From contig DATLUO010000215.1 in the NCBI GenBank assembly GCA_035533075.1, positions 1-64,000 on the forward strand: 64,000 bases of DNA. The letters run 5' to 3'. Below the pieces are notes generated by a model. That model was given only the letters and a program-made list of their open reading frames with translations. It searched no databases and was not told the origin of the DNA. The stretch comes from Pirellulales bacterium (lineage in GTDB: Bacteria; Planctomycetota; Planctomycetia; Pirellulales; JAICIG01). This document shows positions 1,438-45,005 of this stretch, piece by piece (within the stretch, counting starts at the first letter, position 1; each line of letters starts with the position of its first letter). The position numbers were made by a program, and so were the translations under genes.

Positions 1438-1914
1438 TCAGCGCCGCAGGTACTGCTGATACGCGGCGACGGCCAGCTCGTCGCAACGGTCGTTCTCGGC
1501 GTGGCCGCTGTGGCCGGCGACGCGCGTGTATTGGAGCGAGTGCCGCGCAATCAACTCGTCGAGCTTCCGCCAGAGGTCTTCGTTCTTGACCTCCTTCAGG
1601 CTTTTTCCCTCGCGCCGCCGCCAGCCGTTGGCTTTCCATTTCGCCAGCCATTCGCTGAGTCCTTTGCCCACATAGACGCTGTCGGTGAGGAGCTCGACAT
1701 GGGACGGAGATTTCAGGGCTTCCAGTCCACGCACGACGGCCGTCAATTCCATGCGGTTGTTCGTGGTCTCCGGGTCGCCGCCGCTGGCGACCAGTTCTTT
1801 GCCGGAGTTCGGATGTTGCAGGATGAACGCCCAACCGCCCGGCCCCGGATTGCCGCTGCACGCGCCGTCGGTGTAGAGCAGCACATGGGGAAGATCGGTT
1901 TGTGGATTCGGCAT
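1438..1914 (-). CDS. rnhA: Ribonuclease HI
   Basis: The 158-residue product matches the usual length of bacterial RNase HI, which cleaves the RNA strand of RNA-DNA hybrids in the cytoplasm. The catalytic DEDD set is visible in order: 'YTDGACSGNPGPGGW' (first Asp), 'NNRMELTAV' (Glu), 'LLTDSVYV' (Asp) and 'ENDRCDELA' (last Asp). The conserved 'VAGHSGH' segment is also present. The ATG at 1914 directly abuts the TAA stop of the Uma2-like gene (1917-1915), with no spacer, so the two are probably cotranscribed and translationally coupled. The gene looks intact. Confidence 0.95.
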   Translation of the reverse strand: MPNPQTDLPHVLLYTDGACSGNPGPGGWAFILQHPNSGKELVASGGDPETTNNRMELTAVVRGLEALKSPSHVELLTDSVYVGKGLSEWLAKWKANGWRRREGKSLKEVKNEDLWRKLDELIARHSLQYTRVAGHSGHAENDRCDELAVAAYQQYLRR

Positions 1915-2655
1915 TTAGCTTCCCGATTCACCAAGCCGCCGTCGTAGTTCGGCCAACTCCTGGCGAAGCTGCTCGTTTTCGGCGGCGATGCGATCGCGTT
2001 CGGCCAAGATACGAGCGCGCTCGGCGACGGCGACGTCGCGTTCAGCCGATGCTAAAGCCAGCAACTCCAACGCTGGCGGCAGTAACTGCCCAATGACCGG
2101 ATCGTAGACCCGCAGGTCCTCGCCCTGTGCTTCGAAGTGCAGGCCGGTGGCCTCGCTGACCAGTCGCCCATCGAGCGGTTCCAGCGCGACGTATTTGCCG
2201 TTATCGAGCCGATAGCCTTGCAGTTTCGGGTCGAGGTACTCGCCCCGCGGATCGAAGAGCAGATATTCTCTAACGCCGAGAACGTTCTGGTAGAGCCGCT
2301 TTTTCTTGCCGAGGTCCTCCGCCTTGGTGCTCTTACTGGTCAACTCGATGATCAAGTCGGGAGCGGCTTCTTCCCACACCAGATAATAGTCGCGCTGCTT
2401 CTCCTTTGCCACGCCGCGAACGAAAAAAACGTCGGGAGCGACGTGCTTTCGCTTATCGCCGGGAACGTAGTACATCAGCATATTGCCCGACACATAAACC
2501 ATTGGCTCATCGGTAAAGTAGCGGTCAAGCACATCGATCAGGTCGAAAAGATTGCGACGATGGACCGGAGTTTCAGCCACAGGACGGCCATCTCCACTAG
2601 GATAGATCGTGTGGTCGACCGTGCCCGGCGATTGCGGCGTAGGTGTAAGGTGCAT
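1915..2655 (-). CDS. Uma2 family (DUF820) endonuclease-like protein
   Basis: The product has the Uma2/DUF820 restriction-endonuclease-like fold signature: 'PDVFFVRG', 'PDLIIELTSKST', then a lysine/tyrosine-containing helix and 'GVREYLLFDP'. The last 50 or so residues (alternating AERARILAERDRI and ENEQLRQELAELRR) form a predicted coiled coil typical of the planctomycete and cyanobacterial versions. I chose the ATG at 2655 (MHLTPTPQ) because the family usually begins shortly before the 'HRRNLFDLIDVL' region and a GAGAGAG stretch lies just upstream. The frame is open to an ATG at 2757, which would add 34 poorly conserved-looking residues. The role is unknown; the family is often multicopy. The stop codon touches the rnhA start. 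Confidence 0.8.
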   Translation of the reverse strand: MHLTPTPQSPGTVDHTIYPSGDGRPVAETPVHRRNLFDLIDVLDRYFTDEPMVYVSGNMLMYYVPGDKRKHVAPDVFFVRGVAKEKQRDYYLVWEEAAPDLIIELTSKSTKAEDLGKKKRLYQNVLGVREYLLFDPRGEYLDPKLQGYRLDNGKYVALEPLDGRLVSEATGLHFEAQGEDLRVYDPVIGQLLPPALELLALASAERDVAVAERARILAERDRIAAENEQLRQELAELRRRLGESGS

Positions 2656-25566: not shown

Positions 25567-25605
25567 CTTTTTTGATATAAGCAAGTCTTGCTCATATCAA
25601 AAAAG
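25567..25605. other. 39-bp palindrome in the AT-rich accessory region
   Basis: Left arm 25567-25585 (CTTTTTTGATATAAGCAAG) and right arm 25587-25605 are reverse complements with one mismatch and one central base. T residues are on the 5' side and A residues on the 3' side within the stem itself. It therefore lacks the stem-then-T-run order of a terminator on either strand. It is 190 bp before a three-gene cassette and could be an operator, a recombination site or a mobile-element end. Nothing else was recognised in 25350-25795. Confidence 0.6.
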
Positions 25606-25795: not shown

Positions 25796-26575
25796 ATGAT
25801 TGACCCTGAACACGAGCCAACGCACAGGCCGCGGGAGGGTGCGGCGATCGCAACGATTGGATTTGGCATTCGGGTCACGTTTTACCCAGAGTTGAGGCTA
25901 GAGAGAAAAAGAGGTCATGAGTTTGCGGCTGTCTTATCAGAATTCCTGAGCATCGACAGCGACGAGATACAGAGCCATCGTTGGTCATTTGTTGCTCCGC
26001 TTGCTGGAGCCAACGAAAGCCGAATGAACATCGTCGTTAACCCGAACTCAGCCCACATTGACTTCAGGTCGCCACATCAGGAGACGGCCGAACTAAAATT
26101 CACGAATGTTCTAGAGGCCCTGGGCAAACACTTTGAGCCTAAAATCATTTTGCAATCCTCCGCGATTGTTCGCGGCACCCTGGACATCGACGGTGATTCT
26201 CGGCAATTTGTTGCGGCTCATCTGATGAACATGCCAGAGAGCAGGCATGAAAAACTTGGGCGACCATTGCACTTGCTTGGCATTCGGGTGCTTTGTCCTC
26301 CATTTAAGCGGGTTGATCCGGCGACGAACCAGGAATCTGCGGTCGAGTGGTCAGTGAACCTAAGAGTCGAGTCACTTATCGAGGATGTGCGGAAGTTATT
26401 CATCGAAGCGGACGCAGATTGGTTCGACGTGAGCCAATGGGACAGCGACGTAGTAGAAAAGAAAATCGTAACTCAGCATTTGGACGACGTAAAGAAGTAT
26501 CTAGATTCTTCGGTTTTGTCTTTTTTGGTGGGAAACGGCCACGACATTTCGCCAGACGGCGGAGGTAACTTATGA
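25796..26575 (+). CDS. Unrecognised protein, first gene of a three-gene cassette
   Basis: The 259-residue product starts at ATG 25796 (MIDPEHEPTHRP); a longer frame to 25661 runs into upstream palindrome-flank sequence. I do not recognise the family. Visible features are beta-rich segments ('IGFGIRVTFYPELRLERKRG', 'ESRMNIVVNPNSAHIDF'), repeated short acidic/aromatic patches and a helical C-terminus. The layout loosely recalls proteins of the TIGR04255 type, which often sit in defence or mobile regions; this is a weak inference. Base composition is clearly more AT-rich than the surrounding genes, suggesting transfer. Its TGA stop overlaps the next ATG (ATGA). Confidence 0.6.
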   Translation: MIDPEHEPTHRPREGAAIATIGFGIRVTFYPELRLERKRGHEFAAVLSEFLSIDSDEIQSHRWSFVAPLAGANESRMNIVVNPNSAHIDFRSPHQETAELKFTNVLEALGKHFEPKIILQSSAIVRGTLDIDGDSRQFVAAHLMNMPESRHEKLGRPLHLLGIRVLCPPFKRVDPATNQESAVEWSVNLRVESLIEDVRKLFIEADADWFDVSQWDSDVVEKKIVTQHLDDVKKYLDSSVLSFLVGNGHDISPDGGGNL

Positions 26576-26895
26576 GCACTGGTTTTCGTTGGGCGCGATT
26601 TGCGGAAAACGTCAAGGGGGGCTTTACAGTCGATTGGCGTCCAGATGTTTTTCGCGGTGTCGTTTGGCCGTCGGAAAACGATCAAGCGTGGCCATTTGAC
26701 TCGCCTTTTGAGGAATACCTGCGCTATGAATCCGCCAGCAGTGGCGAGTCAGTCGAACGCCTTCGGGAGAGAGAAGGAAATGCGCAGAAGGAGGTGGGTC
26801 GTCTGGCCCCTTCGCAAGATAAACTACGGATTCTTGCGGAGCGCAGCACCCCACCCGCAAAATATCTCGAAGGCGATGAGTCCTCTCCATTTTAA
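26572..26895 (+). CDS. Unrecognised 107-residue protein, second gene of the cassette
   Basis: Starts at ATG 26572 inside an ATGA overlap with the preceding gene, which argues for real translation and coupling. The product is hydrophilic and Trp/Phe-rich at the N-terminus ('GFRWARFAENVKGGFTVDW'), with an acidic-basic helix (SGESVERLREREGNAQKE) and an 'AERSTPPAKYLEGDE' tail. Its size and position just before a PemK-like gene suggest an antitoxin-like partner, which is inference only. Base composition is AT-rich like gene 1. Confidence 0.55.
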   Translation: MSTGFRWARFAENVKGGFTVDWRPDVFRGVVWPSENDQAWPFDSPFEEYLRYESASSGESVERLREREGNAQKEVGRLAPSQDKLRILAERSTPPAKYLEGDESSPF

Positions 26896-26906
26896 TCGGC
26901 TCCGAA

Positions 26907-27257
26907 ATGCCGAGCAAAAACTTCAAGCAAGGTGCAATCGTTTGGGCTAAGCTCGGGCCGCGTGGTCTGTACAAGAAGCGCCCTGCAGTCATCCTAACCC
27001 GCGACTCTGAGCTAGACGCAACGAAGTCGTTTTTCGTCGCCGCCGGCTCGTGTCAGGTCTCGTCCCCCCTGGCAGCAAACGAGGTGCTTTTGCCTTCAGG
27101 CGGATCGCTGCCACATCCCTTGACTAGGCTGAAAAAACCGACGGTGATCGTGTGCGACTGGATTGAGGAAGTGACCTATTCAGACGTGATCCAATGGGGA
27201 GGCGAGACGCCCCCGACTGCGCTTTTGGAAATCCTCTCCAAACTGCCGAACCTGTAG
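26907..27257 (+). CDS. PemK/MazF-like protein, third gene of the cassette
   Basis: The 116-residue product has the start of the PemK/MazF beta-barrel: 'FKQGAIVWAKLGPRGLYKKR' followed by 'PAVILTRDSEL', then 'AANEVLLPSGG' and 'LKKPTVIVCDWIEEVTY'. The last segment resembles the conserved 'L.kps.a.cd.i..v' stretch of MazF-like endoribonucleases. It begins 11 bases after the preceding stop. Most MazF partners are small single antitoxin genes, so a two-gene upstream partner set would be unusual. The fold assignment is by motif; RNase activity is inferred. Confidence 0.65.
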   Translation: MPSKNFKQGAIVWAKLGPRGLYKKRPAVILTRDSELDATKSFFVAAGSCQVSSPLAANEVLLPSGGSLPHPLTRLKKPTVIVCDWIEEVTYSDVIQWGGETPPTALLEILSKLPNL

Positions 27258-30321: not shown

Positions 30322-31455
30322 ATGCCGGACGTAGTTCCGTACATTGATGAATCGCTTGATGAAATCGATGATGAATCGCAACGGTTCTTGCCCGGATTGG
30401 ATGTCGAAGAAAACGCCGACCAGGAGGGCGAGGAGTATTACGCAGTCGAATACTCCATCTCCAGCTACGGTGCAGATTACCCGGTCGACGGCCTGGTAAA
30501 GCGGATCGACGCGGGCAGCATCTTCATCCCTCCTTTTCAACGCGGCTACGTCTGGAACATCTATCGTGCGTCGCGGTTTATCGAATCCCTGTTGTTGGGC
30601 TTACCCGTGCCGGCCATCTTCTTGTCTCGCGATGAAGGAACGCAAAAACTGCTGGTGATCGATGGCCAGCAGCGGTTGCGCACGCTGCAGTACTACTATG
30701 ACGGCGTCTTTCCGGCCGCTGAGGCGGCGTTCAAATTGAAAGGGGTCAATGCGCGCTTTGAAGGATCGACCTACAAGACCCTCCGCGAAGAAGACCGCCT
30801 CCGACTCGACGACTCAATCCTCCACGCCATCATCGTCAAACAGGAAAAGCCGCTCGACGAGGATCCATCGAGCATTTATCACATTTTTGAACGGCTTAAC
30901 ACGGGGGGCGTGTTGCTGCAACCGCAGGAGATTCGCAGTTGCATTTTCCATGGGCCATTATCGAAGCTTTTGCACGAGTTGAATAGCGATGTGCGATGGC
31001 GCGCGATTTTCGGCAAAGTCAGCAGCCGAATGCGCGACCAGGAATTGATTCTCCGCTTCTTCGCTTTGTTCTACAATCAGAGCGATTACTCCAAGCCGAT
31101 GAAGGAGTTCCTTAATCGCTTCATGGCGCACCACCGGTCATTGAATGCTGGCACGGCTGCCGAGTTTCGCCGCGCGTTCGAGGAGACCGTTCGCCTGATA
31201 TACGACGCTTTGGGCACGAAGGCCTTCAAGCCAAAACGCGCCGTAAATGCCGCGCTTTGCGATGCAGTCATGGTTGGGACCGCATCCCGACTGAAAGCCG
31301 GCCTTGTCGAAGATGCCGCGGCCATGAAGGCCGCCTATGCGGGCCTGCTGGCGAATGCGGATTTCCAGGCAGCGATCGGCTCGGCGACCACGAACGACGC
31401 CAGCGTACATGCCAGGCTGAAACTCGCGCGCGGGGCGTTCGCAACCGTCCCATGA
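30322..31455 (+). CDS. DUF262 (GmrSD N-terminal-like) protein
   Basis: The 377-residue product has the DUF262/ParB-like nuclease signatures 'IDAGSIFIPPFQRGYVWN', 'ESLLLGLPVPAIFLSRDE' and 'LLVIDGQQRLRTLQYY', then 'IFERLNTGGVLLQPQEIRSC'. Such proteins occur in GmrSD-type modification-dependent restriction and in other defence loci. In this one the C-terminal DUF1524 HNH nuclease domain is absent. An acidic N-terminal leader precedes the domain. The TGA stop overlaps the ATG of the HEPN gene (ATGA), so the two are coupled. The defence role is an inference. Confidence 0.85.
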   Translation: MPDVVPYIDESLDEIDDESQRFLPGLDVEENADQEGEEYYAVEYSISSYGADYPVDGLVKRIDAGSIFIPPFQRGYVWNIYRASRFIESLLLGLPVPAIFLSRDEGTQKLLVIDGQQRLRTLQYYYDGVFPAAEAAFKLKGVNARFEGSTYKTLREEDRLRLDDSILHAIIVKQEKPLDEDPSSIYHIFERLNTGGVLLQPQEIRSCIFHGPLSKLLHELNSDVRWRAIFGKVSSRMRDQELILRFFALFYNQSDYSKPMKEFLNRFMAHHRSLNAGTAAEFRRAFEETVRLIYDALGTKAFKPKRAVNAALCDAVMVGTASRLKAGLVEDAAAMKAAYAGLLANADFQAAIGSATTNDASVHARLKLARGAFATVP

Positions 31456-31910
31456 TGACGAAAGAGTTGGCGGGCGCTCGCGACCGCATCAACAGTTTGC
31501 TGGCGAGGGTCGCCGAGATTGACGACGCCGAAATGCAGTCTCACTGGGCGCGTTACTTGTGCGTGTTGGTTTGCGGCTTTCTAGAGGTTGCCGTGGCCGA
31601 ACTATTCATGCAGTATGCCGAGAACCGGGCGGAACCGAAGGTGGCCAGATTTGTGGCGAAGCACCTGCGGCGCTTTCAGAATCCGAAGATGGCCAGAATT
31701 CTCACGGTGATCGGGGAATTCAGCACGGAGTGGCGCGACGAAATCGAGTTAGCAACCAACGGCCAGCTTGCCGACGCTGTGAACAGCGTCGTGGCAAACC
31801 GGCATCTGATCGCGCATGGTCGTAGCGTTGGGATCAGCTACGTGCGCGTCAAAGACTACTTCGCCTCGGTACTCAAGGTCGTCGAATTGCTTGACGCACA
31901 GTTGGCGTAG
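31452..31910 (+). CDS. HEPN-domain protein coupled to DUF262
   Basis: Starting at ATG 31452 in a 4-bp overlap with the DUF262 stop, this gene encodes 152 residues of all-helical protein. 'ARYLCVLVCGFLEVAVAELF' is the hydrophobic helix of RiboL-PSP/MAE_28990-type HEPN domains. 'NRHLIAHGRS' provides the R-x4-H motif of HEPN ribonucleases. The longer in-frame opening at 31257 overlaps the DUF262 gene and was rejected. HEPN toxins next to DUF262 proteins are known in defence islands. RNase activity and the pairing here are inferred. Confidence 0.78.
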   Translation: MMTKELAGARDRINSLLARVAEIDDAEMQSHWARYLCVLVCGFLEVAVAELFMQYAENRAEPKVARFVAKHLRRFQNPKMARILTVIGEFSTEWRDEIELATNGQLADAVNSVVANRHLIAHGRSVGISYVRVKDYFASVLKVVELLDAQLA

Positions 31911-44302: not shown

Positions 44303-45005
44303 CCCGCTTGCTCCGCAAGCGGAACGCGGCCGAGAATGAGACATTGGCGGTGGCTGGGGCAGAGCCTGGGCCGTTAAAAAGTTGGCCTTGCGATGGTTTC
44401 GTTGTTATACCGATCTAGTTCCGCCACGACGGGGCTTGCCCCTCGTTGTTCTACACAAGTCCGACGCCGCGGCGCGGCCGTTGCGTTTCCCAGTCCCGTA
44501 GGGACGGTAGAGTTTAGCCAGGGCGCAAGCCCACGGACGAGGGACGCCAACGATCCGCGCAGCCGCGTAGCGGCGACAGAGCGCGTGGTGCGCTACCTCT
44601 CTCGCCGCTGCGCGGCTTGCCTAATCTACCGCATCGGTACCGTGGGCTCGCGCCCACGGCTAAACTATCTTGCCGCTACGCGGCTGACGCGCGAGACGTG
44701 TAGAACAACGAGGGCTTGCCCCGGTGGCGTGGGATTTCCCGACGGAACAAAATCCAGCGCGACTATAAATCGTCAAAGCTGGCCAAAAGGCCAAGTTTTC
44801 ACCGGCCCAGGCAGAGCCTGGCCAAGTGGCGGCTGGCACTTCGTTCATCTCGGCGGCCAGGCGATGCCCCGGTTGGACGCACCGGGGCACCGCTTGGCCG
44901 CCACGCTCTTGAAGGGCGCCAGCCGCTATCGGGCCAAGCTCTGCCCCAGCCATCGCTTTTCCTCACGGCAAAATGTCTCATTCTCGGCCGCGAGAAGTAT
45001 CGCTC
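44299..45005. repeat. Field of nested inverted repeats between convergent genes
   Basis: The region starts with a family A copy (44299-44324). An outer inverted pair follows: 44325-44345 matches 44972-44992 perfectly over 21 bases, and 44352-44365 matches 44938-44951 over 14. A middle pair, 44431-44456 with 44698-44722 ('CTCGTTGTTCTACAC' core), lies inside. An inner pair has 'tagagtttagcc' near 44509 and its complement near 44660. No protein-coding frame is convincing. The structure resembles stacked non-autonomous elements. Confidence 0.8.

What the first reader, a model, noticed from the sequence alone, without database searches (positions are those of the whole stretch)
25796..27257. AT-rich three-gene cassette ending in a PemK/MazF-like protein
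Genes at 25796, 26572 and 26907 are coupled (ATGA overlap, then an 11-base gap) and more AT-rich than their surroundings. Only the last resembles a known fold. Two unknown upstream partners for a MazF-like protein would be a non-standard toxin-antitoxin or defence layout. A 39-bp palindrome marks the upstream boundary.
Basis: partly seen in the sequence, partly recalled or inferred. Interest (0 to 1): 0.65.

Follow-up and report, generated by a model that had tools for sequence, protein, structure and literature searches.

The report
Three-gene toxin module with unknown partner
A planctomycete bacterium carries a toxin gene, its small antidote gene and, in front of them, a gene for an undescribed protein whose relatives precede several unrelated toxin-antidote pairs in other planctomycetes, which points to a three-part system in which the extra protein controls the antidote.

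Summary
The three genes are there as described. Gene 3 is a PemK/MazF toxin. Gene 2 looks like its antitoxin: its C-terminal tail (PPAKYLEGDE) recurs on different ORFs directly upstream of other MazF paralogues in the same genome. Gene 1 has no match in Pfam, NCBIfam, PADLOC or PHROGs. Including the window, nine planctomycete genomes have a gene-1 relative as first gene before a toxin-antitoxin pair: six MazF, two YafQ-like, one DUF433-DUF5615. In the window's own class all six members found are linked in this way; the tree needs at least four changes of this state. In other classes the family mostly stands alone, one copy per genome. The partner antitoxins are largely unrelated to each other. 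The DUF433 antitoxin beside gene 1 has a 58-residue N-terminal extension that none of the other readable DUF433 loci shows. A confident AlphaFold model of gene 1 (pLDDT 92.6) shows, in my reading, a tandem TBP-like fold with the element order of the uncharacterised TIGR04255 family, which also heads three-gene cassettes here. Best reading: a tripartite toxin-antitoxin module that works like toxin-antitoxin-chaperone (TAC) systems, with a partner not recognisable as SecB. The partner's role is inferred, not shown.

The parts
25567..25605 (.). 39-bp imperfect palindrome, possible terminator or operator; not conserved at most related loci
25796..26575 (+). Gene 1: 259-aa third component of an undescribed family; AlphaFold model reads as tandem TBP-like fold
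   Evidence: homologues before toxin-antitoxin pairs
26572..26895 (+). Gene 2: 107-aa antitoxin candidate (variable N-terminal part plus MazF-partner tail)
   Evidence: no library match
26830..26892 (+). C-terminal tail of gene 2, ILAERSTPPAKYLEGDESSPF, shared with ORFs upstream of other MazF paralogues
   Evidence: L013, L015; looser in L012
26907..27257 (+). Gene 3: 116-aa PemK/MazF-family toxin
   Evidence: PF02452 E 1.2e-6 above cut-off; MazF6 in PDB E 0.003; conserved G9, R25, P26

Best explanation
The trio is a three-component toxin-antitoxin module. Gene 3 is a MazF-type mRNA endonuclease (family shown, activity inferred). Gene 2 is its antitoxin, which caps the toxin with its C-terminal tail (shared tail shown, binding inferred). 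Gene 1 is a dedicated third protein, encoded first and translationally coupled to the antitoxin gene, that binds the antitoxin's module-specific N-terminal segment and keeps the antitoxin folded or protected from proteases; when gene 1 is lost or titrated the antitoxin fails and the toxin is freed. It would thus work like SecB-dependent toxin-antitoxin-chaperone (TAC) modules, with a tandem TBP-like-fold protein in place of SecB and the addiction segment at the N-terminus instead of the C-terminus. Shown here: the recurrent operon architecture, the exchange of toxins and antitoxins behind one family of gene 1, the extra N-terminal extension on a DUF433 antitoxin, and the predicted fold. Inferred: the direct gene 1-gene 2 contact, the protective role and the trigger.
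For: Gene-1 family members are the first gene before PemK/MazF pairs in G000, G041, G562, G145, G012 (truncated) and G481, before YafQ-like pairs in G410 and G859, and before DUF433-DUF5615 in G419. All six members found in the window's class are linked. The linked state needs five changes on the tree, at least four forced by supported branches. Toxins and antitoxins are exchanged while gene 1 is kept. The gene-1-linked DUF433 antitoxin has a 58-aa N-terminal extension, whereas in the other readable DUF433 loci the nearest ATG is 5-15 residues before the domain. Known TAC modules likewise combine one chaperone family with HigBA, HicAB and MqsRA, and the antitoxin extension is transferable (PMC5105189). 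Most linked gene-1 proteins are acidic, and E192 and E204 are conserved in the strands, which fits a protein partner better than DNA.
Against: No contact between genes 1 and 2 has been shown. The antitoxin N-terminal segments share no detectable motif. Gene 1 is not detectably related to SecB by sequence or among the best 50 folds. Stand-alone relatives sit near chaperone genes (ClpB, parvulin) in only a minority of contexts. A regulator reading also fits the gene order.
Confidence: 0.5

Rival explanations
1. Gene 1 is the module's transcriptional regulator, as in paaR2-paaA2-parE2 or omega-epsilon-zeta: the antitoxin has no DNA-binding domain, and gene 1, with its TBP-like saddle, binds the operator (perhaps the 39-bp palindrome) and controls the operon.
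For: Same gene order as paaR2-paaA2-parE2 (regulator, small antitoxin, toxin; PMC8630535). Apart from the DUF433 protein, the linked antitoxins tested match no known DNA-binding domain. TBP is a DNA-binding fold, and viral TBPs are among the fold matches.
Against: Most linked gene-1 proteins are acidic (pI 4.6-6.3; one, G012, is 8.7). No conserved upstream palindrome. The G419 antitoxin keeps its DUF433 domain and still has gene 1 plus an added segment.
Confidence: 0.27
2. Gene 1 is the sensor of a defence module: it holds the toxin-antitoxin pair silent and releases it when a phage component or a stress signal binds gene 1.
For: The chaperone of CmdTAC is part of an anti-phage system (paper PMC11618068 found). 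Exchange of toxins behind one partner fits a sensor-effector layout. A GmrSD/HEPN gene pair lies 3 kb downstream.
Against: No PADLOC match for the trio; no homologue of gene 1 found in viral contigs, phages or plasmids; not tested.
Confidence: 0.1
3. Gene 1 is a household or passenger gene that happens to lie upstream of toxin-antitoxin pairs, which insert readily; genes 2 and 3 are an ordinary two-gene module.
For: Most family members in other classes have no recognised toxin-antitoxin pair beside them. MazF with a tail-bearing partner exists in this genome without gene 1 (L013, L015). In the phylum sample, 3 of 60 loci besides the window's is only weakly above a generous background of 1.4% (P about 0.05).
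Against: Six of six members in the window's class are linked. At least four changes of state are forced on the tree. Gene 1 is always upstream, on the same strand and close, mostly within a few bases. The antitoxin extension is specific to the linked DUF433 copy.
Confidence: 0.13

Closest known systems
Toxin-antitoxin-chaperone (TAC) systems with SecB-like chaperone (HigBA, HicAB, MqsRA; PMC5105189)
   Same: Three-gene operon; one partner family serves unrelated toxin-antitoxin families; an antitoxin carries an added segment where the partner is present (seen in G419)
   Different: Partner is not detectably SecB; it is encoded first; the added segment is N-terminal; toxins are MazF, YafQ-like and DUF5615; dependence not shown
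paaR2-paaA2-parE2 and omega-epsilon-zeta three-component modules (PMC8630535)
   Same: Third gene first in the operon (paaR2), small antitoxin without known DNA-binding domain, toxin last
   Different: Gene 1 has a TBP-like predicted fold and no match to any regulator family; DNA binding not shown
mazEF / PemIK type II toxin-antitoxin pairs
   Same: Gene 3 is a PemK-family toxin preceded by a small antitoxin-like gene
   Different: Gene 2 matches no known antitoxin model, and a third gene is coupled upstream
TIGR04255 (sporadTIGR04255, NCBIfam, uncharacterised)
   Same: Length, predicted order of secondary-structure elements, shared S-adenosylmethionine decarboxylase entries among the best fold matches, first gene of three-gene cassettes
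   Different: Gene 1 does not match the model, and profile comparison is not significant
TATA-binding protein fold
   Same: Tandem beta-alpha-beta4-alpha-like repeats in the model
   Different: No sequence similarity; low TM-scores; DNA binding unlikely from charge

Membership tests
PemK/MazF toxin (PF02452) | Match above the curated profile cut-off | tested here: met
   Gene 3: 29.1 bits against 23.1; five of the related loci also match above cut-off, one truncated
PemK/MazF toxin (PF02452) | Sequence-specific mRNA cleavage and growth arrest | not testable with these tools
   Conserved G9, R25 and P26 only
Type II toxin-antitoxin system | Adjacent antitoxin gene encoding a toxin-binding protein | tested here: inconclusive
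   Gene 2 is adjacent and upstream, with a tail shared by partners of other MazF paralogues; neutralisation not tested
TAC (SecB-like chaperone module) | Third gene encodes a SecB homologue | tested here: not met
   No SecB among PDB profile matches or the best 50 fold matches
TAC (SecB-like chaperone module) | Antitoxin carries a C-terminal chaperone-addiction extension | tested here: not met
   The extension seen in G419 is N-terminal; the C-terminal part of gene 2 is the putative toxin-binding tail
TAC (SecB-like chaperone module) | Antitoxin function depends on the third protein | not testable with these tools
   Needs co-expression assays
Three-component module with separate regulator (PaaR2, omega) | Third protein carries a recognised DNA-binding domain | tested here: not met
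   No Pfam, NCBIfam or PHROG match for gene 1; model is TBP-like
TIGR04255 | Match above the NCBIfam cut-off | tested here: not met
   No match for gene 1 or any of 60 relatives; profile comparison 2.6% probability
TIGR04255 | Same fold | tested here: inconclusive
   Same order of elements in both models and shared fold matches; the models could not be superposed here
TATA-binding protein fold | Tandem beta-alpha-beta4-alpha repeats with detectable TBP similarity | tested here: inconclusive
   Topology fits; viral TBP at E 1.7e-5 but TM-score 0.26 and large rmsd

The most novel reading that the evidence does not exclude
Gene 1 and TIGR04255 are branches of one unrecognised superfamily of tandem TBP-like-fold proteins that act as exchangeable third components of bacterial toxin-antitoxin modules: the antitoxin is made dependent on them through an added N-terminal segment, across known toxins (MazF, YafQ-like, DUF5615) and unknown ones.
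Probability: 0.33. Interest if true: 0.8.

Novelty: new variant of a known kind. Interest (0 to 1): 0.62.

Why it matters
In the TAC modules described so far, the helper on which the antitoxin depends is SecB-like. A second, apparently unrelated helper family would show that making antitoxins dependent on a third protein evolved more than once. It would also help to find toxins: genes two places downstream of gene-1-like or TIGR04255 proteins become candidates, several of them without any known domain. The DUF433 antitoxin with and without the extension gives a ready-made test of transferable dependence.

Tried and rejected
SecB homology of gene 1: no support. Gene 1 in viral contigs, phages or plasmids: none found. 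The palindrome as a conserved operator or repeat: single copy, not conserved. A profile of six distant gene-1 relatives gave no searchable stretch in genome contigs; a narrower one found only two loci. Sequence homology with TIGR04255: not significant. The third gene of a TIGR04255 cassette as a distant MazF: no support. The weak G576 match (45 residues, no toxin pair seen) was taken as spurious. I first expected gene 1 to be an unrelated household gene, because I searched the first short flanks with the single gene-3 sequence; a profile search and the longer loci changed that.

Full report
Observation. The three ORFs, the ATGA overlap, the 11-base gap, the low G+C (53.3% against 62.8 +/- 2.6%) and the 39-bp palindrome are all as stated. 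The window lies in an 8.54-Mb genome of 296 contigs. The named database relatives of gene 1 are planctomycetes, and I take the window's phylum to be the same.

Gene 3 and gene 2. Gene 3 is a PemK/MazF protein above the Pfam cut-off; its only PDB sequence matches are MazF6 chains. The genome holds several MazF paralogues. Directly upstream of some of them stand different ORFs ending in a common tail: gene 2 ..AERSTPPAKYLEGDESSPF, L015 ..AAKHRPPAEWFEGDEEGTF, L013 ..AKRFVPPAEWFEEGDPFEPQ, with a looser version in L012. The L013 partner carries a DUF6941-like domain, just below cut-off, in front of the tail. Gene 2 is therefore most simply read as an antitoxin made of a variable N-terminal part and a MazF-binding tail. 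The binding is inferred from the general behaviour of MazE-type antitoxins (own knowledge).

Gene 1 is undescribed. No library matched gene 1, and none of 60 relatives gave a meaningful Pfam or NCBIfam match. A six-row profile found relatives in 87 of 392 genomes of the phylum, nearly always one copy. Most are stand-alone genes in unrelated contexts: behind ClpB, behind a helicase-associated protein, behind a transport permease, before a parvulin-type isomerase or a carbon-nitrogen hydrolase (ClpB, helicase-associated and permease are my reading of the sequences).

Gene 1 heads toxin-antitoxin operons. In G041 a gene-1 homologue is followed after about 2 nt by a 90-aa ORF (..FDFLDDPTQDIYTWVDGDEP) and an overlapping PemK gene. 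In G419 (35% identity, same N-terminus) it is followed by a DUF433 protein and a DUF5615 PIN-like protein. In G562 an 84-aa ORF and PemK follow; in G145 a 93-aa ORF and PemK, and in G012 an 85-aa ORF and a truncated PemK. In G410 and G859 related small ORFs and a YafQ-like toxin follow; the YafQ matches (2e-6 and 2e-5) are just under the curated cut-off. In G481 an ORF ending EEDVYTMDDGEPL and PemK follow.

How strong is the link. In the window's order and class, searches of 58, 347 and 398 partly overlapping genomes found six members of the family (G000, G419, G562, G410, G481, G859), and all six are linked to a toxin-antitoxin pair. In the phylum-wide sample 61 neighbourhoods were examined and four are linked, the window's included. 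With a background of 0.45-1.4% of genes followed by such a pair (my rough assumption, guided by the MazF and DUF433 counts), 3 of 60 gives P = 0.003-0.05; five of five further members in the class is far beyond chance. The profiles used for the wider class searches were built from linked members, so those counts are not unbiased. On the tree the linked state needs five changes, at least four forced by supported branches. Several long branches make exact placement uncertain.

What is exchanged and what is kept. The gene-1 proteins of G000, G859, G419 and G562 are 32-38% identical, yet stand before MazF, YafQ-like, DUF5615 and another MazF. The YafQ antitoxins of G410 and G859 are related to each other although their gene-1 proteins belong to different subfamilies. 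Apart from a short C-terminal match between G041 and G481, other antitoxin pairs show no similarity. The DUF433 antitoxin of G419 is the most telling case. In the other readable DUF433 loci from four genomes the nearest in-frame ATG lies 5-15 residues before the domain; here the coupled start lies 58 residues before it and the nearest ATG 27. An otherwise ordinary antitoxin has gained an N-terminal segment where gene 1 is present.

Fold. AlphaFold2 with 61 sequences gave pLDDT 92.6 and pTM 0.88. The order of elements is beta-alpha-beta4-alpha, then beta-alpha-alpha-beta3-alpha, which I read as tandem TBP-like repeats. No solved structure matches well over the whole length (TM-scores about 0.3 for the top entry); the best E-values go to S-adenosylmethionine decarboxylase and YwmB, with CENP-N further down. 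The viral library includes TATA-box binding proteins, again with low TM-scores. The NCBIfam family TIGR04255, present in 12 of 40 relatives and twice in this genome, also heads three-gene cassettes. Its model (pLDDT 78) has the same order of elements, and its matches include the same decarboxylase entries and subunits of transcription pre-initiation complexes, which I take to be TBP. Profile comparison is not significant, so common descent is a suggestion only. No paper in the library mentions TIGR04255.

Mechanism. Two known layouts fit: helper-dependent modules (TAC; SecB-like chaperone with HigBA, HicAB or MqsRA; PMC5105189) and modules with a separate regulator (paaR2-paaA2-parE2; PMC8630535). 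I prefer the first. The added segment on the DUF433 antitoxin, the mostly acidic character of the linked gene-1 proteins, the conserved acidic residues E192 and E204 in the strands and the lack of a conserved upstream palindrome speak against a pure repressor. The preference is moderate, and nothing here shows a contact between genes 1 and 2.

Verdict. This is a real, recurrent three-gene toxin-antitoxin arrangement with an undescribed third component: a new variant of a known kind. If the helper role is confirmed, it adds a second protein family to antitoxin addiction.

Noticed in passing
window 30322-31910 (+): A GmrSD_N/DUF262 gene (PADLOC NsnA E 2.6e-70, PD-T4-2_A 2e-56) overlaps by 4 bases a RiboL-PSP-HEPN gene (PF18735 E 1.8e-16): a coupled nuclease-like pair that may be a defence or toxin module, 3 kb downstream of the trio.
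   Followed up: partly
L130-L143 (TIGR04255 loci): TIGR04255 proteins head conserved three-gene cassettes of several types: L131/L135 (small ORF plus 195-aa 'QDCDL' protein), L132/L134/L136, L138/L139/L141/L143 and L140/L142 (third gene looks like a metallo-beta-lactamase fold). Several second and third genes tested have no Pfam match and are candidate new toxins or antitoxins.
   Followed up: partly
L011 (G000:C290) 1489-1842 (+): The MazF paralogue most similar to gene 3 (44%) sits 38 nt behind a PQQ-repeat (BamB-like) gene with no small antitoxin ORF seen between them.
   Followed up: no
L013 (G000:C276) 1477-2420 (-): A MazF partner made of a DUF6941-like domain plus the common PPAEWFEE tail; suggests that unrelated N-terminal domains are joined to one MazF-partner tail in this genome.
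   Followed up: partly
L082 3065-4140 (+): A gene-1 homologue overlapped by 4 bases by a 121-aa ORF without Pfam match, with a HEPN-like ORF on the other strand nearby; may be a further cassette type.
   Followed up: no
window 44640-44685 (+): Acido-Lenti-1 RNA (RF01687, 43.9 bits) near a tRNA-Ala gene (44860-44956, minus strand).
   Followed up: no
L122 upstream of the gene-1 homologue (G562): A perfect 35-bp palindrome with 17-nt arms (CCACAACTAGACTTCGGGCCGAAGTCTAGTTGTGG) 146 nt before the gene-1 start, unlike the window's palindrome in sequence.
   Followed up: no
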